From Trileptium ribeirensis (Eukaryota > Nematoda > Enoplea > Enoplida > Thoracostomopsidae), in contig JASANE010029459.1 of NCBI GenBank assembly GCA_030248225.1, positions 62,001-126,000 of the forward strand: DNA of 64,000 nt. Reading direction: 5' to 3'. Positions 47,395 to 62,280 of this stretch are shown one piece after another. The translations under genes were made by a program, and so were the position numbers. Position 1 is the first letter of the stretch, and the number at the start of each line of letters is the position of its first letter. A model generated the notes under the pieces. That model saw nothing but the letters and a program-made list of their open reading frames with translations. It did not search any database and was not told the DNA's origin.

Positions 47395-48321
47395 ATAAGA
47401 ATAAAATGCCCTGCGAATGATTATGGAGCATTTTTGTTTTGCTCTAAATTATCTATTTAGTATTCGCTAAAACTAACAACAAACACAACACAATCATCGG
47501 AGTTTGTTTTACTTATATTAATTTGGTTGACGTCATACAGCAACTACCGTAAATTAGAATAAAATGCCCTGCGAATGATTTTGGAGCATTTTTGTTTTGC
47601 TCTAAATTATCTATTAGTATTCGCTAAAACTAACAACAAACACAACACAATCAATGGAGTTTGTTTTACTTATATTAATTTGGTTGACGTCATACAGCAA
47701 CTACCGTAAATTAGAATAAAATGCCCTGCGAATGATTTTGGAGCATTTTTATTTTGCTCTAAATTATCTATTAGTATTCGCTAAAACTAACAACAAACAC
47801 AATAACGGAGTTTGTTTTACTTATATTAATTTGGTTGATGTCGTACAGCAACTACCGTAAATAAGAATAAAATGCCCTGCGAATGATTTTGGAGCATTTT
47901 TGTTTTGCTCTAAATTATCTATTAGTATTCGCTAAAACTAACAACAAACACAACACAATCAATGGAGTTTGTTTTACTTATATTAATTTGGTTGACGTCA
48001 TACAGCAACTACCGTAAATTAGAATAAAATGCCCTGCGAATGATTTTGGAGCATTTTTATTTTGCTCTAAATTATCTATTAGTATTCGCTAAAACTAACA
48101 ACAAACACAATAACGGAGTTTGTTTTACTTATATTAATTTGGTTGATGTCGTACAGCAACTACCGTAAATAAGAATAAAATGCCCTGCGAATGATTTTGG
48201 AGCATTTTTGTTTTGCTCTAAATTATCTATTAGTATTCGCTAAAACTAACAACAAACACAACACAATCAACGGAGTTTGTTTTACTTATATTAATTTGGT
48301 TGACGTCATACAGCAACTACC
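47389..48321. repeat. Six-copy tandem array beginning at the Roquin stop codon (3' UTR)
   Basis: Units start at about 47391, 47549, 47706, 47857, 48014 and 48165, each 151-158 bases, opening with CCGTAAAT.AGAATAAAATG. The first unit contains the real stop codon. Each unit has an AATAAA signal, a hairpin GAGCA / TGCTC with a U-rich loop (TTTTTGTTT), and a TGACGTCATA or TGATGTCGTA end. Units 3-4 and 5-6 repeat as a dimer (units 3 and 5 share the same short deletion and GATGTCG variant). Confidence 0.93.
47398..47405 (+). terminator. First Roquin poly(A) signal
   Basis: AATAAA at 47400-47405, a few bases after the stop, repeated in each of the five later units. Which copy is used cannot be seen. 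The first is so close to the stop that a later one is likelier. Confidence 0.45.
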
Positions 48322-48772
48322 GTAACATGTATACAACCGTGACTTGAATTCATTTCCAATTTATATTATAATATTAGAGATTGGTCTACTCTACAAACAG
48401 CTTTCAGTAGAACTGATTCTGCTAAATTAGAATTTATTAAACCTAAAAATTTAGCAAAATCAATCGTAAATGTTTGCTAGAATAAAATATTATCCGAAAT
48501 ACAACTAATAAGGGTCATTTCACGATACGATGACCTTTTAGTCGGGGGGGGAGGGAAAATTTGGTAGTTTGGGGCAGAGGAGCGGGGAGGGGGGGGAAAT
48601 GGTAAAAATGTTAGTTAGGGAGTAGTTTAGTAAAAAAAAAAAAAACTCGGCCCCCGCCAAGGCAGGCGCACCCACACCACAAAAAGCCCAAAACGAAAAA
48701 AATATTAATAACTTTCTCTTCCTCTTTTTTTTGTTCTTCGTTCCGTTGGGCATATCCCTTTTTTCATGGAAC

Positions 48773-48998
48773 TGTCGTGCACAGCACGATATTGAGGCCG
48801 TCTCTTATTTTTGGACTTCTGATTTGCATACGAAGGCAATTAGCTATATAGGGACGATGCACTTTTGTATATATAAATGAAGCGAATATGTGATTTTTCG
48901 CTCCGATTCAATAGACCTGTTTTCGTTTACCGTTTCTTGGTTTTGTGTTCAATAAGTCCTGAAAGTTTTGTTAGTATACGTTGTGAAGCGTCACAACA
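48773..48998 (+). repeat. 5' LTR (226 bp)
   Basis: Begins TGTCGTGCACAGCACGA and ends GCGTCACAACA (TG...CA). The first bases form a small hairpin (TCGTGC-ACA-GCACGA). TATATAAA at about 48870 is a plausible TATA box for the element's RNA. Identical to 56383-56608. Confidence 0.95.
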
Positions 48999-49000
48999 TT

Positions 49001-49018
49001 TGGTGCCGCAACAATTCG
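49001..49018 (+). promoter_or_regulatory. Probable tRNA primer-binding site
   Basis: TGGTGCCGCAACAATTCG starts two bases after the 5' LTR and has the TGG start expected for pairing with a tRNA CCA end. The tRNA species was not identified. Confidence 0.6.
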
Positions 49019-49204
49019 TCGAACAGTGCTACGATTTCAGCGAGTTCAACTCCAAGTCTTGACTGTAGAGTTCAGTTAAGATTATTCCGACGGCGACGGT
49101 CTCATCGCAGCTCCTGTATCTACAACTCTTGATCAAACAGTTTGATTAAGATCGCCGATATCCATCACAATCCAGTGCAATCAAAGTCAGGGAACGGAAC
49201 TATC

Positions 49205-49212
49205 ACGTAAGC
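49205..49212 (+). promoter_or_regulatory. Candidate splice donor in the retrotransposon leader
   Basis: CAC|GTAAGC with GT at 49207, upstream of the gag ATG. Joined to the acceptor at 54807 it would remove gag-pol and give a subgenomic RNA for ORF3. This is inference from consensus only. Confidence 0.45.
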
Positions 49213-49266
49213 GTTGGGCTTCGATATACTCAACTTTAAATTTTGTTGACTATCAAAGTATCAAAT

Positions 49267-50646
49267 ATGTCTAAACCTTTGAAAGTTTTGGTTCAACAGC
49301 GGAAAGGTTTTCGACTTAACGCTAACAAACAATTAGCTCTTTTTAAAACATTGCGTACTGATTTTGAAGCAGCCGATTTTGTTGAAAAATTACAAATTTT
49401 TGTTGAAAAAGTGCAATATTATCATACTCAAATCGAAGAGTTAGACGCAGAAATTTTAACTCAACTAGAAGACGAAGATCAAATTGCACAAGAGGTCGAG
49501 TCTACCAGTTCGCTGCGGGAGTTGATGATCGATGCTATTAAGACAGCGTCCGTTGCGATCAACAACTCTAGGCAGTCTGCCGCTTCCCCACCACCCGGTG
49601 AAGATCTTGATGAGACATCCACGCAGCGAGCGAGAACAACCGTTAAACTGCCGCAGCTAGTTATCGATAACTACGACGGGGATCCACTGTCTTGGCAAGA
49701 GTTCTGGGACAGTTATGATTCCACCATTCATAGCAATCCCGATCTTTCGGACATCGATAAGTACAAATACCTGCGCAGCTACTTGCGTGGGGATGCTCTG
49801 AATGTTATTGAAGGATACCGCTTGACTTCATCCAACTACTCCACCGTGGTCGAGGTCCTTAAAGAACGATTTGGCAATGCCGAGTTAGCTATTTTTGCCC
49901 ACTTCGAAAAGCTCCTGGCAATGCAGTCCACCAATGATTCAGCCAAACTGCAGCGTGTCTATGACGAATGTGAAAAGCACATTCGTAGTTTGGTTGCCCT
50001 TGGACTCAATGAAGATACATTTGGTCAGGTCTTCACTCCAATAATTTTATCAAAGCTCCCTCGGGCATCCCGAATCATTATCCATCGGCGAAACGGATCC
50101 ACACCATGGAAGTTAGTCACGTTGCGTTCGATGCTCAAAGACGAAATCAAAGCCCACGAAATGAGCGATTGCTATACTTCCACCTTGTCTTCATCTTCCA
50201 ATACACCTGCGCAACAGCAGAGTTCTGTTACGCATAAGAAGTCTCCGCGACCGCTTCCACCGTCGCAATCCACCTTGTCGAATCACTCCACGCGCTCTGT
50301 TTCGTGTTGTTTTTGTCGTGGGAATCACTACGCAGATAAGTGCACTAAATTTGCAACGGTTGCGAAGCGCAAAGGTGCACTCGCTGGTAGGTGCTTCAAT
50401 TGCCTTGGGGAGGGTCATGACGCCCGACGATGTACACGGAACCGAACATGCTTTTATTGCAAAAGAGCAGGACATCACAGCAGCCTGTGCTTCGAGAAAT
50501 TCGGTGGAGATGGCCGATCTGAACAGGATGCAGCGAGTAAGCCCACCAAGGGTGCGAAAACGGGGCCCTCCAGTGCTGCTCAAACGTCAAAGGACACAAC
50601 ATTGATGATTGGGGGTCGCAGGTGCAAATGCAACTTGCCACAGTGA
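49267..50646 (+). CDS. gag: BEL/Pao Gag with three zinc knuckles
   Basis: 459 residues from the ATG at 49267 (the frame opens earlier at a TTG, but ATG is the better start). A coiled-coil-prone N-terminus comes first. The BEL-type capsid core (DUF1759-like) spans about residues 127-290, with LPQLVIDNYDGDPLSWQEFW and YKYLRSYLRGDAL. Three zinc knuckles follow: CX2CX3HX4C at about 347-359 and two CX2CX4HX4C at about 376-389 and 395-408. Gag packages the element RNA. The frame stops at 50644, overlapping the pol frame by 25 bases. Pol is in the -1 frame, and a run of five G lies in the overlap approach (50611-50615). Confidence 0.93.
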   Translation: MSKPLKVLVQQRKGFRLNANKQLALFKTLRTDFEAADFVEKLQIFVEKVQYYHTQIEELDAEILTQLEDEDQIAQEVESTSSLRELMIDAIKTASVAINNSRQSAASPPPGEDLDETSTQRARTTVKLPQLVIDNYDGDPLSWQEFWDSYDSTIHSNPDLSDIDKYKYLRSYLRGDALNVIEGYRLTSSNYSTVVEVLKERFGNAELAIFAHFEKLLAMQSTNDSAKLQRVYDECEKHIRSLVALGLNEDTFGQVFTPIILSKLPRASRIIIHRRNGSTPWKLVTLRSMLKDEIKAHEMSDCYTSTLSSSSNTPAQQQSSVTHKKSPRPLPPSQSTLSNHSTRSVSCCFCRGNHYADKCTKFATVAKRKGALAGRCFNCLGEGHDARRCTRNRTCFYCKRAGHHSSLCFEKFGGDGRSEQDAASKPTKGAKTGPSSAAQTSKDTTLMIGGRRCKCNLPQ

Positions 50647-53600
50647 AACTTACTGGTATAGCTGGCGATGTTGTTGCCCGTGTTTTCTTTGATACAGGAA
50701 GCACGCGCAGCTACATGACAACTTCTCTTTTCAAACGGCTGGGGCTTCCAAACATGGGAGAAGAAGTGATGTCTATTGCGAAATTTGCAAATAGTCGTCG
50801 ATCAACTGAACGCTTCAAGATTGCTGAACTAAAGATTCCAACGATCGACAAACAATCAATCACCGTGTCAACATTAGTGACTGACGTTATATCCTGCCCG
50901 ATCCAGAAATATCCAATATCTATCAAGAACAATCCAATCTTGTCTCAAATTCGCATGGCGGATCCACCATCTCCTACATCTGAACAAGTCAGCATTGACG
51001 TGTTGATCGGAGTTGATTATTATTACGAATTCATCGGGAGCGAGCGCATCGAATTGTCAAACGGCAGCTATTTAATTGAGTCACGATTAGGCTATATCGT
51101 TGCCGGAAAAGTTCCGTGCAACGACGCCATGCAAGCATCAGCCGTTACACTAGTTTGTCATGATTTCCCAACCCGAAACTTTGACATAGAACGATTCTGG
51201 CATCTTGACGAAGTCGGAGTCAAAGACAGTCCATACCAGGCTGATGACGAAAGAGCAATTGAAGACTTTAACAAGTCAGTGCGTGTTGTCGATGGTCGAT
51301 ATGAAGTAACATTTCCTTGGAAAGGCGGTCCTGACGTTGATCCCGAGCTCCCAACCAACGAGCGATTGGCTGTGGGGCGTTTAACATCGCTGATGAAGCG
51401 GCTGAAAGACAAGCCATCAGTAATTGAACAATATGACAACATCATCCAAGATCAACTTCAGAAAGGCGTCATAGAGCGTGTAGATCTCAAGTCACCCGCT
51501 GATTCCCCTCGAATCCATTACATTCCACATCACTGTGTTATTCGCGAAAACAAGTCAACCACGAAGATCCGTATAGTTTACGATGCCTCCGCTAAGGCAA
51601 GTCGACAACACCCTAGCCTCAATGACTGTCTCCTTCGTGGACCAGTTATACTACAAGACCTCTGCGGAATGTTACTGCGATTTCGGCTGCCAAACGTCGC
51701 TATGGTAAGCGATGTTGAGAAAGCGTTCCTGCAAGTCGGATTGCAACGTCAGGAACGCGATGTCACTCGTTTCTTCTGGTTGAAGGATCCGTGTAAACCA
51801 CCGACGACTGAAAATCTAGTGGTTTTCCGGTTTACACGAGTGCCGTTCGGATTCGTACCCAGTCCGTTTCTTCTTGGTGCTGCTATCAAGCACCACCTGA
51901 GTCGGCAAAGAACGAAGGTTGCCTGCGATATTTCCGACAACCTTTACGTGGACAATATATTGGCAGGACGAGCCAATGTTGCAGATGCAGTAGAATTTTA
52001 CAAAGAGACGAAACAGATATTCACGGATATATCCATGAATGTTCGTGAATGGTATTCAAATTCGAATGACTTTTGTCAACAACTTCCAGTCTGTGACAGA
52101 GGAAGCGATGACAATCCGAAGGTTCTGGGACTCAAGTGGAATACAAAGGAAGACACATTGTCGTGTACCGGGCCAGAGTGTGTCGACAATCAATTGACGA
52201 AGCGGCGACTGCTTCAGTGCATCTCCCAAATCTATGATCCATGCGGTCTACTATCACCACTGACCATCGGTGGTAAAGTGATCGTGCAAAACGCGTGGCG
52301 GCAAAAATTGTCCTGGGACGACACACTTCCTTCAAATCTTCTCGAGAATATTGACTCACTTACCGACACGATCACTCGAATCGGTGAAATTGTAATCCCA
52401 AGACAAGCCACCCCAGTGTATAGCATGCCTAACATCAAGTACGAGATCCACGGATTCTGCGACGCCTCAGCAAAAGCTTATGCTGCTGCGATATATCTGA
52501 GGTCAATTGATTCAAACGAAATTCCTTTCACAAGACTCGTCTACAGCAAAGCGCGGCTAGCTCCCATCAAACCAGTTTCGATTCCCCGTCTCGAACTCAT
52601 GGCGGCAGTAGTTGGATGCCGCTTGATCCAATTTGTGTCAACCGAATTGCGAATTCCAATCGAACGCAAATTTCTTTGGAGCGATTCAAAGTGCGTGCTA
52701 CTCTGGATCAAGTCCACAAAATTGTTGCCGGTATTTGTCCAAAACCGAGTCAAAGAAATAGCAGCCCATCAGGATATTGCTTGCCGATACGTGCCGACAA
52801 CATGCAATCCAGCTGATCTTCCAACCCGCGGTACGGATATCGAAACGCTGCAGATTAGCACTATGTGGTGGCACGGTCCACAGTTTTTGCAGGTATCACA
52901 AAATCTGTGGCCTGAGCAAGACATTAATCTAACAGATCGCGAAGAAGACATATCCCTCATTGATGACAATCGCATCATTAAAAAGGTCAATAGACCTACG
53001 GGCCTGACATGCGCAGCCGAGCGGCTACCTGGGATCGGCGCTATCATCGATGTTACAAAGTATTCTCGATTACTTCATCTGCTGCGTGTCACTGCCCTCG
53101 TTCTGCGGTTTGTGGAACGCTGTCAACAAAGATGTCGTTCCATTAGCGATTCAAATAGTGATGGTCTACTCGTCAATCCTGCAGATATGGCAGCAGCTGA
53201 AGAACATTGGATTCGATACATACAATCAACAATGTTGCCGGACGGTCTGAAGAGCAAGGAATCCAGCAACTTGGTGCGTCATCTGGGTTTGTTCCTGGAT
53301 GACCGTGGTGTAGTTCGATGTAAGGGTCGCCTTGAGCTGTCGGATTTGTCCGAAAGCTCAAAGTACCCAAAATTGCTGCCCAAAAATCATTATTTCACCA
53401 ACTTACTGATATCCCATTGCCACGAACGGTTGTTTCACTCTGGTGTCCGACAAACCCTCGCTCAACTCAGACTCCAGTACTGGGTCCCAAATGGTCCTTC
53501 ACAAGTCGGTAAACTTTTGAAACATTGCCTTGTTTGTCGACGCGCTCAAGCCGGCCCATATCAAGTACCCGATAGCCCGCCCTTGCCCTGGTTCCGAGTT

Positions 53601-54680
53601 TCGGTTAGCCATCCGTTTCAAAATGTGGGTATCGACTACCTTGGACCGCTGTTTATCAAAGGTTCCACAGCTGCTAAAGCATGGGTATGCTTATTTACCT
53701 GTGCAGCAACCCGCGCAATCCATTTGGAAGTGGTCACAGATGCCACTACGGAGCAATTTCTGATGAGCTTGCGGCGATTTTGTGCAGTTTACGGAGCTCC
53801 GTCGATGATCGTATCCGATAACGCAAAACACTTCAAGTCGGCGCAGACGGTGCTAAAGCGAATCTCCATAGAACCCAATATCCAGCGCTATTCAACGTCC
53901 GAAGGGATTCAGTGGAAATTTCTGACCCAGCTAGCGCCATGGATGGGGGGTTTTTATGAGCGCTTAGTGGGATCTGTGAAACGAGCTCTACGCAAGACAC
54001 TGGGGAAGAATTGTCTAACACTGGTCGAGCTTCAAACAGTTGTTGTAGAAGTTGCAGCAATTGTTAATTCACGTCCGTTAATTCCAGCCAATCCAGAAGT
54101 TGGTGAGCCACTTTTGACGCCGGGCCATTTCTTGTCGCGGCGAGGTCGTGCCGGCCTTCCATCGTTCCAAACAGGCAGTGAGGAAGCATATGAAGAACGT
54201 CCCACAACAGCCAGCAAGCTGTTGGACAAGTGGTCACAAGGTCAGAAAGCGCTCGATGCCTTCTGGAAGATATGGCAAAACGAATACTTAGCTAGTTTGA
54301 GAGAACGTCCACCACCTAACCTGAATGACCGTAATTCGACGCGCTTAGAACCGACCGTTGGTGACGTGGTATTAATCAAAGAGCCACTCCCACGATGCCA
54401 ATGGAAGCTGGGGAAAGTGGATTCTGTACATGTTGGTCGTGACAAAAACTGCCGATCAGCCACGGTGATCACTCCCAAAGGGAAACGGTTGACTCGCTCT
54501 CTTAAACACCTTGTCCCAATAGAAATAAACTGTTTCAAAAAGACTGTGGCCGAGCAAAGGGCTCGTGAATCTGCTGGTGAGATCAAGGGTGGCATGCGGC
54601 CGCCCAGAGAGGCAGCTCGCAAAGCTAAAGAAGCAATCCGGCACGATGCGAACCTTTTGGCTTCCAGTGACGAGGAATAA
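50622..54680 (+). CDS. pol: BEL/Pao Pol: protease, reverse transcriptase, RNase H, integrase
   Basis: 1,352 residues with no internal stop. Aspartic protease: FFDTGS at residues 22-27. RT: VSDVEKAF (Asp364) and the catalytic tetrad YVDN at 442-445, with Asn where many RTs have the second Asp. RNase H: FCDAS (Asp614), RLELM (Glu658), WSDSK (Asp688), ADLPTRG (Asp732). Integrase: H934/H939/C969/C972 zinc motif, then GIDYLG (Asp1005), SDNAK (Asp1066) and YERLV (Glu1113). C-terminal DUF5641-like GDVVLIKE..P...WKLGKV. All catalytic positions are present, so the enzyme looks intact. It is most likely made by frameshift or readthrough from gag, since it has no ATG of its own near the start of the domain. 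Confidence 0.95.
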   Translation: MQMQLATVKLTGIAGDVVARVFFDTGSTRSYMTTSLFKRLGLPNMGEEVMSIAKFANSRRSTERFKIAELKIPTIDKQSITVSTLVTDVISCPIQKYPISIKNNPILSQIRMADPPSPTSEQVSIDVLIGVDYYYEFIGSERIELSNGSYLIESRLGYIVAGKVPCNDAMQASAVTLVCHDFPTRNFDIERFWHLDEVGVKDSPYQADDERAIEDFNKSVRVVDGRYEVTFPWKGGPDVDPELPTNERLAVGRLTSLMKRLKDKPSVIEQYDNIIQDQLQKGVIERVDLKSPADSPRIHYIPHHCVIRENKSTTKIRIVYDASAKASRQHPSLNDCLLRGPVILQDLCGMLLRFRLPNVAMVSDVEKAFLQVGLQRQERDVTRFFWLKDPCKPPTTENLVVFRFTRVPFGFVPSPFLLGAAIKHHLSRQRTKVACDISDNLYVDNILAGRANVADAVEFYKETKQIFTDISMNVREWYSNSNDFCQQLPVCDRGSDDNPKVLGLKWNTKEDTLSCTGPECVDNQLTKRRLLQCISQIYDPCGLLSPLTIGGKVIVQNAWRQKLSWDDTLPSNLLENIDSLTDTITRIGEIVIPRQATPVYSMPNIKYEIHGFCDASAKAYAAAIYLRSIDSNEIPFTRLVYSKARLAPIKPVSIPRLELMAAVVGCRLIQFVSTELRIPIERKFLWSDSKCVLLWIKSTKLLPVFVQNRVKEIAAHQDIACRYVPTTCNPADLPTRGTDIETLQISTMWWHGPQFLQVSQNLWPEQDINLTDREEDISLIDDNRIIKKVNRPTGLTCAAERLPGIGAIIDVTKYSRLLHLLRVTALVLRFVERCQQRCRSISDSNSDGLLVNPADMAAAEEHWIRYIQSTMLPDGLKSKESSNLVRHLGLFLDDRGVVRCKGRLELSDLSESSKYPKLLPKNHYFTNLLISHCHERLFHSGVRQTLAQLRLQYWVPNGPSQVGKLLKHCLVCRRAQAGPYQVPDSPPLPWFRVSVSHPFQNVGIDYLGPLFIKGSTAAKAWVCLFTCAATRAIHLEVVTDATTEQFLMSLRRFCAVYGAPSMIVSDNAKHFKSAQTVLKRISIEPNIQRYSTSEGIQWKFLTQLAPWMGGFYERLVGSVKRALRKTLGKNCLTLVELQTVVVEVAAIVNSRPLIPANPEVGEPLLTPGHFLSRRGRAGLPSFQTGSEEAYEERPTTASKLLDKWSQGQKALDAFWKIWQNEYLASLRERPPPNLNDRNSTRLEPTVGDVVLIKEPLPRCQWKLGKVDSVHVGRDKNCRSATVITPKGKRLTRSLKHLVPIEINCFKKTVAEQRARESAGEIKGGMRPPREAARKAKEAIRHDANLLASSDEE

Positions 54681-54799
54681 TTAAAATTTTAATCGAATTC
54701 AAAATAGACATACTAATTGCTGTATTTAGAATAATTCATGTTTATTTAGTGAGTTCTTCGTGTTTGTTTGTCCATATGTACTCTTCATGTGCATTCGCG

Positions 54800-54808
54800 T
54801 TTTTCAGT
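54800..54808 (+). promoter_or_regulatory. Candidate splice acceptor for ORF3
   Basis: GTTTTTCAG with AG at 54806-54807, one base before the ATG of ORF3 at 54809. It is as strong as the acceptors of the neighbouring Roquin gene. Its placement suggests a spliced env-style subgenomic transcript. Confidence 0.5.
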
Positions 54809-56233
54809 ATGCTCAAGCTTGTCAACTCTGACAGCCCCTTGTCACGACTCCATGTCTTTGGTCGGCCCATTCCAGTACACAACTCTACGGCCACATCAAT
54901 CGAAATGTTGTATGGATGTGCCCTACTCATTCAACATGGTCAAATTGCGGATGCTGACGATTTTTTGCGCAACGACGCGTTACGACGTGATCCTTCCAGT
55001 ATCAGCGGTTGGCTACGCCGCACTCTTCGTAATCAAAGTCCCAACACCATCATGTTTGCGGACGATATTTACTATGCCGTGATGCTACATCTCCTAGAAG
55101 ATTCTGACAATGATTTTTGCCGGGAAATTCATTACCTGGCAGGGGATGTTGACAGCGATTCAATAGAGGATCAAGATCATCTTGAATTTGTATGTGTTGG
55201 TGAAAACCAAGTATGGTGCTGCGGCGTTGCAGGGTCAATCGTCCGTCGGAACGACTTCGACAAGGACCGCTGTTCCGGTTTCAATCGGTATGGTCGACTG
55301 CTGACGAAATTTCTAGAGCAGCTCCGTCAACGCCATATCTTCGTACAATGGGAGTTGTCGATATTGACGGATGAGCACCAACCAGTCAATTCGTTTCTGA
55401 TGTCGGCGAATTACTCAAAGACAGTACTGATCTTGTCTGACAGTCTGGCAAGACAGGTAAAGTGGGTGGCCGGTGGTGCAGTGGTAACCGTCAGAGGTGC
55501 CAAATACAAGGACCTTGCACGGGAGATCAAAAGACGCAATATTCGATTACATAATTATATGGTTGTGATCATCATATGCGGCGTCAACGATTGTCAGCGG
55601 CCTCTAGCAGAATGGCAATCGTCTTGGAATGAGTTGCAGCAGCAGTTAATAGTCTTAAAAGATCATCCAGATACATCGATTATCATGCACAGCCCCGTTA
55701 GTATTCCGCCACCACAGGGTGACGCTCGACACCCCACATGGATGAAGGAACAGTTCAACGCAGCCTTTCCCGAAAGCCACTACTTCTACGTCGATTGGTC
55801 GTGTCCTTTTGATAATCCGTTTCTTCATACCAGCGGAGAAATTAATCGGCGACACTTCACTGATCGTGTCCATGTTCAGCATCAAGGATTCCGTCAATTA
55901 TGGAAAGCAGGCTGTCAACGGATCCCACAACTGGAAATGATATCATTCAAATTGTCAGCCAATCGACGGTTTGCCTCGGGGATCCAGCGTCTGCCTACTT
56001 CTCGATCGTCACATCCTCTACGTCCGATTGCTGTTTCAGCAAATTGGCCGTCCACATCACGGGAACATCGTTTATTCAAATCGCATCGCGTGCAACCATC
56101 ATCATCTGCACAACCAGTGCGACAACATAGTGCAAGTCGAAAGCGATCCGGCAAAGCAGCAAGATGCGATATCTTCACTACGAGAGCATTTCCCCATCTC
56201 CAGTGGTCTCCCAAAATCCCTATGCTCCACTGA
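54809..56233 (+). CDS. Retrotransposon ORF3 with SGNH/GDSL-hydrolase motifs (env position)
   Basis: 474 residues from ATG 54809 (open from a GTG at 54749; another ATG at 54776). In numbering from 54749, all four SGNH blocks are in order and at normal spacing: TVLILSDSLA (Ser232, block I, SDS for GDS), VTVRGAKYKDL (Gly250, block II), VIIICGVND (Asn280, block III GxND) and DRVHVQHQGF (Asp372, His375, block V). SGNH enzymes hydrolyse esters, as lipases, esterases or deacylases. The first 200 residues match nothing I know. The last 90 are Ser/Arg-rich and basic. No signal peptide, fusion peptide or convincing membrane anchor is visible, so it does not look like an envelope glycoprotein. SGNH domains are known in other retroelements (CR1/L2 LINE ORF1, Ngaro-type DIRS elements), but I do not recall one in BEL/Pao. 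Hydrolase activity is inferred from motifs only. Confidence 0.8.
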   Translation: MLKLVNSDSPLSRLHVFGRPIPVHNSTATSIEMLYGCALLIQHGQIADADDFLRNDALRRDPSSISGWLRRTLRNQSPNTIMFADDIYYAVMLHLLEDSDNDFCREIHYLAGDVDSDSIEDQDHLEFVCVGENQVWCCGVAGSIVRRNDFDKDRCSGFNRYGRLLTKFLEQLRQRHIFVQWELSILTDEHQPVNSFLMSANYSKTVLILSDSLARQVKWVAGGAVVTVRGAKYKDLAREIKRRNIRLHNYMVVIIICGVNDCQRPLAEWQSSWNELQQQLIVLKDHPDTSIIMHSPVSIPPPQGDARHPTWMKEQFNAAFPESHYFYVDWSCPFDNPFLHTSGEINRRHFTDRVHVQHQGFRQLWKAGCQRIPQLEMISFKLSANRRFASGIQRLPTSRSSHPLRPIAVSANWPSTSREHRLFKSHRVQPSSSAQPVRQHSASRKRSGKAARCDIFTTRAFPHLQWSPKIPMLH

Positions 56234-56382
56234 TCAATGTCTAATGGTGTCGCGGCTGTGATGTGTTTATTGGTGCATCAATGTTTTGTCGAACAATCAT
56301 GATGTGAGTAAAGTTCTCATATCATTTTTTGGAGTTTCCATTTTTTGGGTTGCCGTGGCCAGTCATAACTTTGGGGTCGGAG
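56234..56382 (+). other. 3' untranslated segment and weak polypurine tract
   Basis: 150 bases between ORF3 and the 3' LTR. TTTGGGGTCGGAG just before the LTR is the only purine-rich stretch and is a poor polypurine tract. Confidence 0.45.
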
Positions 56383-56608
56383 TGTCGTGCACAGCACGAT
56401 ATTGAGGCCGTCTCTTATTTTTGGACTTCTGATTTGCATACGAAGGCAATTAGCTATATAGGGACGATGCACTTTTGTATATATAAATGAAGCGAATATG
56501 TGATTTTTCGCTCCGATTCAATAGACCTGTTTTCGTTTACCGTTTCTTGGTTTTGTGTTCAATAAGTCCTGAAAGTTTTGTTAGTATACGTTGTGAAGCG
56601 TCACAACA
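56383..56608 (+). repeat. 3' LTR (226 bp)
   Basis: Identical to the 5' LTR at all 226 positions by eye. Ends CACAACA, followed by GGTATAAAATT. Confidence 0.95.
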
Positions 56609-56925
56609 GGTATAAAATTTTATGAGATTGATTATATATGAGAGGTGATAGATTCCCCCCCAAATTTTTGTAAGAGACAAAATAACGCGGGAAAAAATAT
56701 AACAGCTATACACCGGAGAGATGATGATAAACCCCCCCACTAAAAAAATATATAAAATTTTATTAAAAGAAACGACAATTGCACATTACACCCACCGACC
56801 ACACACCCACCCCAACACAAAAAAAAAAAAATTAAAAAATAAATAAAATTAAAATTAAAACCCCACAAATAAAAAAAAAAAAAACACACCCCACCCCCCC
56901 CATGTTTTGAATTTTTTTGCATAAC
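56609..56925. other. Homopolymer-rich flank of the retrotransposon
   Basis: Long A runs (up to about 14), C7 and C8 runs and CCCCACA-like stretches, with no coding sense. The other flank, 48538-48772, is alike (G8, G-rich, A13). Either low-complexity DNA or poor consensus or gap filling around a repeat. Confidence 0.6.
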
Positions 56926-58349: not shown

Positions 58350-59187
58350 GTAGCTCACGACGAGATTGAACCTCTGACTGAAGGATTGGCGCCCACATTA
58401 GCGGTATAGGGAGCGCATCCATACTGACACTCATGGAATAGAGTGTCAACAGGTGTTTTCGACAAGTATTCGAAACCGAGATGCATATTGCCTCGTATCA
58501 GCAATATTTAATTTAGCTCGCGACGAAGCTGAGCCGCCGACTGAAGGATTGGCGCCCACATTAGCGGTATAGGGAGCGCACCCATACTGACACTGATGGA
58601 ATAGAGTGTCAACAGGTGTTTTCGACAAATATTCGAAACCGAGATGCATATTGCCTCGTATCAGCAATATTTAATCTAGCTCGCGACGAAGCGGAGCCGC
58701 CGACTGAAGGATTGGCGCCCACATTCGCGGTATAGGGAGCACATCCATACTGACACTGATGGAATAGAGTGTCAACAGGTGTTTTCGACAAGTATTCGAA
58801 ACCGAGATGCATATTGCCTCGTATCAGCAATATTTAATTTAGCTCGCGACGAAGCTGAGCCGCCGACTGAAGGATTGGCGCCCACATTAGCGGTATAGGG
58901 AGCGCACCCATACTGACACTGATGGAATAGAGTGTCAACAGGTGTTTTCGACAAGTATTCGAAACCGAGATGCATATTGCCTCGTATCAGCAATATTTAA
59001 TTTAGCTCGCGACGAAGCTGAGCCGCCGACTGAAGGATTGGCGCCCACATTAGCGGTATAGGGAGCGCACCCATACTGACACTGATGGAATAGAGTGTCA
59101 ACAGGTGTTTTCGACAAGTATTCGAAACCGAGATGCATATTGCCTCGTATCAGCAATATTTAATTTAGCTCGCGACGAAGCTGAGCA
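58350..59187. repeat. 163-bp satellite, 5 copies plus partial
   Basis: Units contain GAAGGATTGGCGCCCACATT at 58380, 58543, 58706, 58869 and 59032. The later copies are nearly identical and the first is more diverged. Because 163 is not a multiple of 3, each unit gives its own short minus-strand frame of 73 codons in a shifted register, an artefact of repetition. Confidence 0.95.
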
Positions 59188-61916: not shown

Positions 61917-62280
61917 AGACTGGCGCCGCCTCTCTGTTTGAGATTGTCACATGAGAACATATGGTACCAGACTGGCGCCGCCTCTCTGTTTGAGATTGTC
62001 ACATGAGAACATATGGTACCAGACTGGCGCCGCCTCTCTGTTTGAGATTGTCACATGAGAACATATGGTACCAGACTGGCGCCGCCTCTCTGTTTGAGAT
62101 TGTCACATGAGAACATATGGTACCAGACTGGCGCCGCCTCTCTGTTTGAGATTGTCACATGAGAACATATGGTACCAGACTGGCGCCGCCTCTCTGTTTG
62201 AGATTGTCACATGAGAACATATGGTACCAGACTGGCGCCGCCTCTCTGTTTGAGATTGTCACATGAGAACATATGGTACA
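61917..62280. repeat. 52-bp perfect tandem repeat, 7 copies
   Basis: Seven units starting AGACTGGCGCCGCCTCTCTG and ending CATATGGTACC, identical until the last base pair of the array. The unit contains the palindromes GGCGCC, CATATG and GGTACC. No spacers, so not a CRISPR array. Confidence 0.95.

What the first reader, a model, noticed from the sequence alone, without database searches (positions are those of the whole stretch)
54809..56233. BEL/Pao retrotransposon carrying an SGNH-hydrolase-like ORF in the env position
Seen: an intact 474-codon ORF after pol and before the 3' LTR with SDS, RGA, GVND and D-x-x-H blocks in SGNH order and spacing. Known: SGNH/esterase domains were acquired by CR1/L2 LINEs and Ngaro-type elements; third ORFs in BEL/Pao elements are usually virus-like envelope genes. 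Inference: an independent capture of an SGNH enzyme by a BEL/Pao element, possibly acting on membranes or lipids, or as an RNP chaperone as proposed for LINE ORF1 esterases. The unusual SDS for GDS and the unmatched 200-residue N-terminus add interest.
Basis: partly seen in the sequence, partly recalled or inferred. Interest (0 to 1): 0.88.

Follow-up and report, generated by a model that had tools for sequence, protein, structure and literature searches.

The report
Retrotransposon gene for two-domain hydrolase
A jumping element of the BEL/Pao class, and many of its relatives in the same genome, carry an extra gene for an SGNH-type hydrolase fused to a domain related to ADP-ribose-processing (NADAR) proteins, and some virus-like DNA elements in that genome carry the same gene, so it looks like a shared accessory enzyme more than an envelope gene.

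Summary
Confirmed: a BEL/Pao element (48773-56608, LTRs 226/226 identical) holds an open third ORF (54809-56233) with a complete SGNH tetrad (S212, G230, N260, D352/H355), related by profile to SGNH structures including the zebrafish L2 ORF1 esterase. New here: (1) not a lone capture: of 29 open copies studied in the 687 Mb host genome 23 follow BEL pol, and at least 66 of the 150 best BEL pol ends have an ORF3 downstream, a lower bound. (2) The 'unmatched' N-terminus is a diverged NADAR-like domain (E 3.6e-8 over 156 columns; best of 300 shuffles under half the score); catalytic Glu in 28 of 29, essential Lys in 0 of 29. (3) Four of the 29 sit in Polinton-like elements. (4) dN/dS is 0.08-0.38 in usable pairs; four loci share one frame with pol. 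Best reading: a soluble accessory hydrolase acting with the particle, not an envelope. Substrate unknown; an ADP-ribose-linked ester is the boldest testable idea. SGNH ORF3s in rotifer LTR elements and NADAR in other retrotransposons are published; this fusion was not found in the searches made.

The parts
48773..48998 (+). 5' LTR (TG...CA, 226 nt)
   Evidence: direct repeat 100% identical to 56383-56608
49001..49018 (+). candidate primer-binding site (begins TGG)
   Evidence: by reading, just after the 5' LTR; same in sister copy C6820; pairing tRNA not tested
49267..50646 (+). gag (DUF1759; zinc knuckles by reading), first ATG by reading
50622..54680 (+). pol: protease (DUF1758), RT, Peptidase_A17, integrase (H2C2), DUF5641; overlaps gag in another frame
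54809..56233 (+). ORF3, 474 aa, NADAR-like + SGNH protein (a start at about 54776 is also possible)
54809..55348 (+). N-terminal NADAR-like domain (residues about 1-180); conserved Glu is residue 32, codon 54902-54904
   Evidence: profile-profile match; catalytic columns
55406..55933 (+). SGNH domain (residues about 200-375): S212 codon 55442-55444, G230 55496-55498, N260 55586-55588, D352 55862-55864, H355 55871-55873
55979..56230 (+). variable C-terminal tail (residues 391-474), weakly constrained
   Evidence: dN/dS 0.48 in the tail against 0.095 for residues 1-390, window versus C13123 copy
56370..56382 (+). candidate polypurine tract (interrupted)
   Evidence: by reading, before the 3' LTR; same in C6820 copy
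56383..56608 (+). 3' LTR (226 nt)

Best explanation
ORF3 is a widespread accessory gene of the BEL/Pao elements of this genome. It encodes a two-domain protein: a diverged NADAR-like domain followed by an SGNH hydrolase with an intact catalytic site. It is made alongside Gag and Pol (in some families as the C-terminal part of one frame with pol), so it most likely acts inside or with the particle or RNP, around reverse transcription or nuclear entry, and not as an envelope glycoprotein. The SGNH site is expected to cleave an ester; the NADAR-like domain, which keeps the catalytic glutamate but lacks the essential lysine, more likely binds a nucleotide-type or ADP-ribose-type group than removes ADP-ribose from guanine. 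Shown by sequence: anatomy, homology, linkage, conservation, selection. Inferred: that it is enzymatically active, that it travels with the particle, and the substrate class.
For: SGNH: profile E=3.7e-5 to 4c1b_A (zebrafish L2 ORF1 esterase, nearly its whole length) and 1.1e-5 to the designed protein 9hi6_A; catalytic residues in 28-29 of 29. NADAR: hhalign Prob 95, E=3.6e-8, 156 columns; three ORF3 subclades each alone match over 146-150 columns (E 3.9e-9, 1.6e-5, 6.4e-5); best shuffles score 20.3 of 100 and 23.4 of 300 against 55.2. Linkage: 23 of 29 open copies have BEL pol just upstream; at least 66 of the 150 best DUF5641 places (752 candidates) have an ORF3 within 1.6 kb downstream on the same strand. 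Of 12 such places without a listed ORF3 drawn at random, 6 proved to have one (3 fetched; 3 listed); the other 6 were not examined. Same frame as pol: C18102 (2232 aa; LTRs 1 of 204 different), C15634 (1100), C3363 (2325), C14602 (1676, no integrase seen). Selection: dN/dS 0.095, 0.092, 0.079, 0.22, 0.38 over residues 1-390 in the five pairs with usable dS, the first two not independent. No membrane helix in the 474-aa window protein (highest 19-residue hydropathy 1.27).
Against: No structure: the single-sequence AlphaFold2 model has mean pLDDT 33.8. NADAR is not seen by Pfam in the window protein, only 1 of 25 members reaches E=0.24, there is no PDB match to the N-domain profile, and bacterial NADARs alone score only 21.6, within the range of shuffles (15.5): the link rests on the host genome's own NADARs as bridge. 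In the window family ORF3 is a separate ORF, so packaging with the particle is not shown for it. An upstream ATG gives the window copy, C6820, C9134 and C9778 a possible hydrophobic leader; 18 of 23 copies looked at have no upstream Met. One near-identical pair (C10160/C10599) has 5 nonsynonymous and 0 synonymous changes, and the whole-length ratio of window and C6820 is 0.81 because the C6820 tail is in another frame. 3 of 29 have one hydrophobic stretch above 1.6, inside the domains.
Confidence: 0.68

Rival explanations
1. Lipid or membrane role like that proposed for the LINE ORF1 esterase: the SGNH domain binds and trims phospholipids, helping RNP or particle assembly, exit or transfer across membranes.
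For: The best natural solved relative by profile is the zebrafish L2 esterase 4c1b_A, which binds acidic phospholipids and is an active esterase (PMC3905857, abstract and passages).
Against: The LINE-specific His of ZfL2-1 (H191) is absent in 29 of 29; no membrane segment in the 474-aa window protein; the NADAR-like partner has no obvious lipid role. Coiled coils were not tested.
Confidence: 0.3
2. Envelope-like or secreted function: ORF3 replaces env and helps particles leave or enter cells.
For: Position after pol and before the 3' LTR. An upstream start would give the window family an 11-residue hydrophobic leader; leaders with 12-residue hydropathy of 1.6 or more also occur in C9134 and C9778. 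The rotifer authors kept an env-like role as a formal possibility (PMC5408684, passage).
Against: No TM helix in the window protein, 0-7 glycosylation sequons per copy; no upstream Met in 18 of 23 copies; in one frame with pol in four loci; also carried by Polinton-like DNA elements. The rotifer GDSL ORF3s lack TM and coiled-coil parts (PMC5408684, passage).
Confidence: 0.06
3. Hitchhiking passenger without function for the element.
For: The rotifer GDSL and other ORF3s showed no significant departure from neutrality within the genome (PMC5408684, passage); many copies here are broken.
Against: dN/dS 0.08-0.38 in usable pairs; catalytic residues fixed across copies, most of them 24-35% identical to the window protein; frequent presence behind BEL pol.
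Confidence: 0.04
4. The N-terminal domain is a separate fold that only resembles NADAR through shared short motifs.
For: No Pfam or PDB hit for the window protein; the bacterial-only comparison is weak.
Against: Collinear match over 146-156 columns, also in three subclades taken alone; reversed and shuffled controls fail.
Confidence: 0.13

Closest known systems
GDSL ORF3 of bdelloid rotifer Vesta LTR retrotransposons (and GDSL ORFs of Athena/Terminon elements), PMC5408684 (abstract, passages, sections 3.1 and 3.3 seen)
   Same: SGNH/GDSL hydrolase as third ORF after pol in an LTR element, catalytic residues intact, shared between element classes
   Different: Host elements are dUTPase-carrying retrovirus-like families; the whole word BEL does not occur in the paper; no NADAR partner in the parts seen. 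The sequences were not compared here.
ORF1 esterase of CR1/L2 LINEs (ZfL2-1, 4c1b), PMC3905857 (abstract and passages seen)
   Same: SGNH by profile, S-G-N-D-H order; G to N spacing 30 in both
   Different: Gag-like position with coiled coil; S to G spacing 22 against 18; LINE-specific His absent here
NADAR domains in retrotransposons: Ectocarpus Gypsy Pol and oyster Tx1 ORF1, PMC12477816 (passages seen)
   Same: NADAR domain carried by a retrotransposon
   Different: There a recognisable YbiA-family NADAR, no SGNH partner in the passages seen; here strongly diverged, Lys lost, fused to SGNH, in BEL/Pao
NADAR proteins of viruses and DarT antitoxins, PMC9503650, PMC11543638, PMC11125620 (passages seen)
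   Same: Same domain superfamily by profile; catalytic Glu kept
   Different: Essential Lys and the last-strand charged residue not kept; activity cannot be assumed
Polinton/Maverick elements (recalled definition)
   Same: One ORF3 clade lies in elements of which C6954 has an rve+chromo integrase and an A32-like ATPase
   Different: Search 78 (Polinton with NADAR) found no paper; the 11 papers of one search (Polinton with esterase) were seen as a listing only

Membership tests
BEL/Pao LTR retrotransposon (window element) | Pao-type domains (Peptidase_A17, DUF1759, DUF1758, DUF5641) in one element | tested here: met
BEL/Pao LTR retrotransposon (window element) | Two LTRs with TG...CA ends | tested here: met
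   226/226 identical
BEL/Pao LTR retrotransposon (window element) | Target-site duplication | tested here: not met
   window copy GGAAC/GGTAT; sister copy C6820 has ATGCC/ATGCC; none seen for C18102 either. Taken as a loss in this copy or an assembly join, not a family failure
SGNH hydrolase | Ser, Gly, Asn, His (and Asp) in blocks I, II, III, V in order | tested here: met
   28-29 of 29 copies
SGNH hydrolase | Profile similarity to SGNH structures | tested here: met
   single-protein Pfam match below cut-off, single-protein PDB search empty
SGNH hydrolase | Flavodoxin-like fold | tested here: inconclusive
   model pLDDT 33.8, not usable
SGNH hydrolase | Hydrolase activity | not testable with these tools
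   needs purified protein
NADAR | Full-length profile similarity | tested here: met
   fails with bacterial YbiA-like proteins alone
NADAR | Conserved catalytic Glu | tested here: met
   E32 in 28 of 29; in the other (L035) the start taken lies beyond it
NADAR | Essential Lys seven residues later | tested here: not met
   0 of 29 have Lys; essential per PMC11543638 passages
NADAR | Glu, Asp or His in the last strand | tested here: not met
   no conserved such residue there. Filed as NADAR-like, not as an active NADAR
LINE CR1/L2 ORF1 esterase | Transposon-specific His four residues before block-III Asn | tested here: not met
   0 of 29
Viral envelope glycoprotein | Transmembrane anchor | tested here: not met
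   window protein, highest 19-residue hydropathy 1.27
Viral envelope glycoprotein | Signal peptide | tested here: inconclusive
   not in the 474-aa form; an upstream ATG would add a hydrophobic leader; 18 of 23 copies have no upstream Met
Polinton/Maverick (for the C6954 element carrying the same gene) | Retrovirus-like integrase and packaging ATPase | tested here: met
   rve E=3.4e-9 with chromo; A32 E=1.9e-7
Polinton/Maverick (for the C6954 element carrying the same gene) | Protein-primed family B DNA polymerase | tested here: inconclusive
   motifs A, B, C read by eye; no polymerase family or structure matched
Polinton/Maverick (for the C6954 element carrying the same gene) | Terminal inverted repeats and capsid genes | not tested
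   ends of the element not determined; a 462-aa ORF beside the ATPase has no Pfam or PHROGs match

The most novel reading that the evidence does not exclude
ORF3 is an ADP-ribose-directed esterase: the NADAR-like domain recognises ADP-ribose (on nucleic acid, protein or a free signal) and the SGNH domain removes an ester-linked group, undoing a host ADP-ribosylation defence. Retrotransposons and Polinton-like elements of one genome share this gene as a common counter-defence module.
Probability: 0.2. Interest if true: 0.9.

Novelty: new variant of a known kind. Interest (0 to 1): 0.62.

Why it matters
It shows that what sits in the env slot of a retroelement lineage can be an enzyme kept by selection over many element families, and that one gene can be shared by reverse-transcribing elements and virus-like DNA elements. 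If the NADAR-like/SGNH pair acts on ADP-ribose, it would point to ADP-ribosylation as a defence against transposons, which can be tested with a purified protein.

Tried and rejected
Led nowhere: searches of 5.8 billion proteins found no ORF3 relative with the single protein (E<=1e-3) or the 25-member alignment (E<=0.01); viral contigs none with two single proteins (the alignment was not usable); PDB none with the single protein (E<=1), the N-domain profile (E<=10) or the polymerase profile (E<=10). NCBIfam's best among 25 members was an unrelated lyase at 2.3e-4 in one member, PADLOC's one model at 0.0039 in one member, neither in the window protein. Rfam: none in the window. The structure model is not usable and was not put to a fold search. 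L052 (C9162), sister to the Polinton-like clade with weak support (82/70), shows no match to the element proteins used as queries in 1.0 kb upstream and 5.1 kb downstream; its other ORFs were not put to a family search. The host species was not identified; COX1 matches are broken.

Considered and rejected: env function as the main reading; neutral passenger; a polymerase-bearing element having merely inserted beside BEL remnants (DNA similarity between copies is found in the polymerase, in ORF3 and downstream of it). The direction of transfer between BEL and Polinton-like elements is not claimed: the tree is unrooted.

Limits of counts: the genome search scores only the best candidates (90 of 769; 105 of 768; 107 of 827; 150 of 752), and some copies are split over two rows, so rows are not copies and absence from a list means little. 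The figure 66 of 150 is 48 plus 20 less two places counted in both (C6135, C10811); for the three fetched places the coordinates typed are rounded. Copies with stops in the hit were left out of the 29-member set (listed); one locus held twice was used once, but near-identical copies at different loci were kept (window/L010, L029/L030, L042/L036, L055/L057). L010 and L059 have their ends in another frame. In one search a nested clean-up step failed, so all-gap columns stayed in the subclade alignments. Of 16 pairs, five had usable dS.

Full report
Observation. The ORF at 54809-56233 is real: 474 codons, no stop, starting 129 nt after the pol stop and before the 3' LTR. The element runs 48773-56608. 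Its LTRs are 226 nt, TG...CA, identical. Gag has DUF1759; pol has DUF1758, RT, Peptidase_A17 (E=2.6e-49), H2C2 and DUF5641, so it is a BEL/Pao element. No target-site duplication flanks this copy, whereas the sister copy on C6820 has one and its two LTRs differ at 4 of 226 positions. The LTR matches 6 places in the 687 Mb genome, four of them the LTRs of these two copies, so the family looks small and young.

SGNH domain. Pfam sees Lipase_GDSL_2 in the window protein at E=1.3e-5, below cut-off, and in 20 of 25 relatives at E<=10, best 9.9e-11. A family profile of the C-terminal half finds SGNH structures in the PDB: the designed protein 9hi6_A at 1.1e-5 and 4c1b_A, the zebrafish L2 ORF1 esterase, at 3.7e-5 over nearly its whole length. 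Over 29 open copies Ser212, Gly230, Gly258 and His355 are invariant, Asn260 and Asp352 are kept in 28. Spacing: Ser to Gly 18-19 in 29 of 29, Gly to Asn 30 in 28, Asn to Asp 86-99, Asp to His 3 in 26. In ZfL2-1 the same residues are S143, G165, N195, D279, H282 (PMC3905857, passages). The His that marks the LINE type (H191) is absent in 29 of 29, so this is not a LINE ORF1 esterase.

N-terminal domain. The family alignment A2 (21 sequences) has invariant S30, E32, G139, G157, N159, G162. Compared by hhalign with a NADAR alignment (17 bacterial YbiA-like proteins and 13 NADARs of this genome) it gives Prob 95, E=3.6e-8, score 55.2 over 156 columns, end to end; reversed 13.1; best of 100 shuffles 20.3, best of 300 other shuffles 23.4. 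Three subclades alone give E 3.9e-9, 1.6e-5 and 6.4e-5. As controls, the SGNH half against NADAR scores 10.6, and A2 against the polymerase or the SGNH half 20.7 and 17.9 over short stretches. Results against: bacterial NADARs alone score 21.6 or 15.5, Pfam finds NADAR in 1 of 25 members at 0.24, the PDB search finds none. The link therefore rests on the genome's own NADARs, against which alone the score is 67.6 (E=2.5e-10). NADAR enzymes use a Glu and an essential Lys seven residues later (E88 and K95 of E. coli C7 NADAR; PMC11543638, passages; E48 and K55 in YbiA). ORF3 keeps the Glu in 28 of 29 and has the Lys in 0 of 29, and shows no conserved Glu, Asp or His in the last strand. I call it NADAR-like and do not claim guanine de-ADP-ribosylation.

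Not one capture. In the host genome ORF3 gives 91 match rows from the 90 best of 769 candidates (some copies are split over two rows). Of 29 open copies examined, 23 follow BEL pol, 4 follow a polymerase-like gene of another kind and 2 are unassigned: L008, whose contig begins about 300 nt before it and which is 90% identical to the C19757 copy over 2.5 kb, and L052. From the other side, 48 of the 150 best DUF5641 places (752 candidates) have a listed ORF3 within 1.6 kb downstream on the same strand, 44 of them at 154-455 nt; with the list and three fetched places the count is at least 66 of 150 (less two places counted twice). Of 12 places without a listed ORF3 drawn at random, three were fetched and all three have one, three more appear with one, and six were not examined. 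ORF3 is thus widespread, possibly near-universal, among BEL/Pao elements of this genome; the exact share was not measured.

Polinton-like carriers. Copies on C6954, C10326, C19757, C8312 and C9064 lie about 395-750 nt behind a polymerase-like gene with C2H2 fingers (the C9064 copy has a stop and is not among the 29). I read family B motifs in it; no profile confirmed this. On C6954 the neighbouring genes upstream encode an integrase (rve 3.4e-9, chromo 4.8e-7), an A32-like ATPase (1.9e-7), a NADAR (2e-36), a YqaJ exonuclease (4.9e-8) and a TBP-like protein (7.2e-21). This gene content was looked at on C6954 only. DNA similarity between copies is found in the polymerase, in ORF3 and downstream of it, so ORF3 appears to be inside the element. 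More distant polymerase copies on C17304 and C1958 show no ORF3 in the 1.5 kb behind them. In a tree of 29 the four copies plus L008 are one clade (100/100), among BEL copies. The tree is unrooted and no direction is claimed.

Selection. Sixteen pairs were examined. In the five with usable dS, dN/dS over residues 1-390 is 0.095 (window and C13123; dS 1.8, near saturation), 0.092 (C6820 and C13123, not independent of the first), 0.079 (Polinton-like clade and L008; dS 1.4), 0.22 and 0.38. The other eleven are saturated or nearly identical; one near-identical pair has 5 nonsynonymous and 0 synonymous changes. The window's C-terminal tail is looser (0.48).

How it works. Shown: a protein without a membrane helix in its 474-aa form (highest hydropathy 1.27), with an intact SGNH site, kept by selection. 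A start at an upstream ATG would add a hydrophobic leader in the window copy, C6820, C9134 and C9778; 18 of 23 copies looked at have no upstream Met. In C18102, C15634, C3363 and C14602 ORF3 shares one frame with pol; C14602 lacks a recognisable integrase but keeps ORF3. The C6820 copy keeps gag residues 1-238, pol 1008-1352 and ORF3 1-426 in frame. Inferred: it is made with the particle proteins and acts with the RNP or particle. The pairing with a nucleotide-type binding domain makes an ADP-ribose-linked ester an attractive substrate, a guess I put at 0.2; a lipid role like that proposed for the LINE esterase is the main rival.

What is known. Bdelloid rotifer LTR elements carry GDSL ORF3s, and GDSL ORFs also occur in Penelope-like elements there (PMC5408684: abstract, passages, sections 3.1 and 3.3). 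NADAR domains occur in Ectocarpus Gypsy Pol and oyster Tx1 ORF1 (PMC12477816, passages). Viral NADARs are treated in PMC9503650 (passages; the word starts retroelement, retrotranspos, polinton, maverick and SGNH do not occur in its main text). A preprint on gene transfer among animal viruses has none of NADAR, YbiA, SGNH, GDSL or esterase (PMC11071296, word search). Searches of the held open-access library: BEL Pao with SGNH or with GDSL, 0 papers; Polinton with NADAR, 0; LTR retrotransposon with GDSL and BEL, 1, a lentil transcriptome seen as a listing; Polinton with esterase, 11, listing only; retrotransposon with SGNH and Bel, 2, one checked, SGNH only in its references; NADAR with retrotransposon, 7, one followed. 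So the enzyme kind in this slot is known; the BEL/Pao host, the NADAR-like/SGNH fusion and the sharing with Polinton-like elements were not found in these searches. Subscription papers and Repbase were not searchable.

Noticed in passing
whole genome; e.g. L066-L068, L079:1474-2082: NADAR genes are heavily multiplied in this genome: 150 scored of 2317 candidates, all 150 over the cut-off. Three looked at lie beside ORFs that read like A32-type ATPases, and in eight contigs one lies 7.5-7.8 kb from the polymerase-like gene on the other strand. Polinton with NADAR: no paper in one search.
   Followed up: partly
L079:5190-5744 (-): A TATA-binding-protein-like gene (PF00352 E=7.2e-21) among the genes of a Polinton-like element.
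   Followed up: no
L003-L007: Another SGNH context: a 230-aa SGNH ORF in at least five copies 98-99% alike over 1.4-2.1 kb, divergent to a 460-aa ORF that by eye looks transposase-like (no family search of it).
   Followed up: partly
L043 (C6820): Sister copy of the window element with a large gag-pol deletion; 51 nt identical to part of ORF3 lie at the junction.
   Followed up: no
L039 (C14602): gag, protease, RT and ORF3 in one 1676-aa frame without a recognisable integrase.
   Followed up: partly
window 47389-48325 and 58351-59186; 45038-45413; 61917-62279: Tandem arrays of 157 and 163 nt lie on either side of the element; two further arrays (75 nt x5, 52 nt x7) are 100% uniform.
   Followed up: no
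window 48768-48772 / 56609-56613: No target-site duplication although the LTRs are identical: recombination between copies or an assembly join.
   Followed up: partly
L052/L080 (C9162): An open ORF3 relative with no match to gag, pol or the polymerase-like gene in about 7 kb.
   Followed up: partly
window 54776-54808: Open in-frame stretch with an ATG before ORF3 that would add an 11-residue hydrophobic leader; longer hydrophobic leaders are possible in C9134 and C9778.
   Followed up: partly
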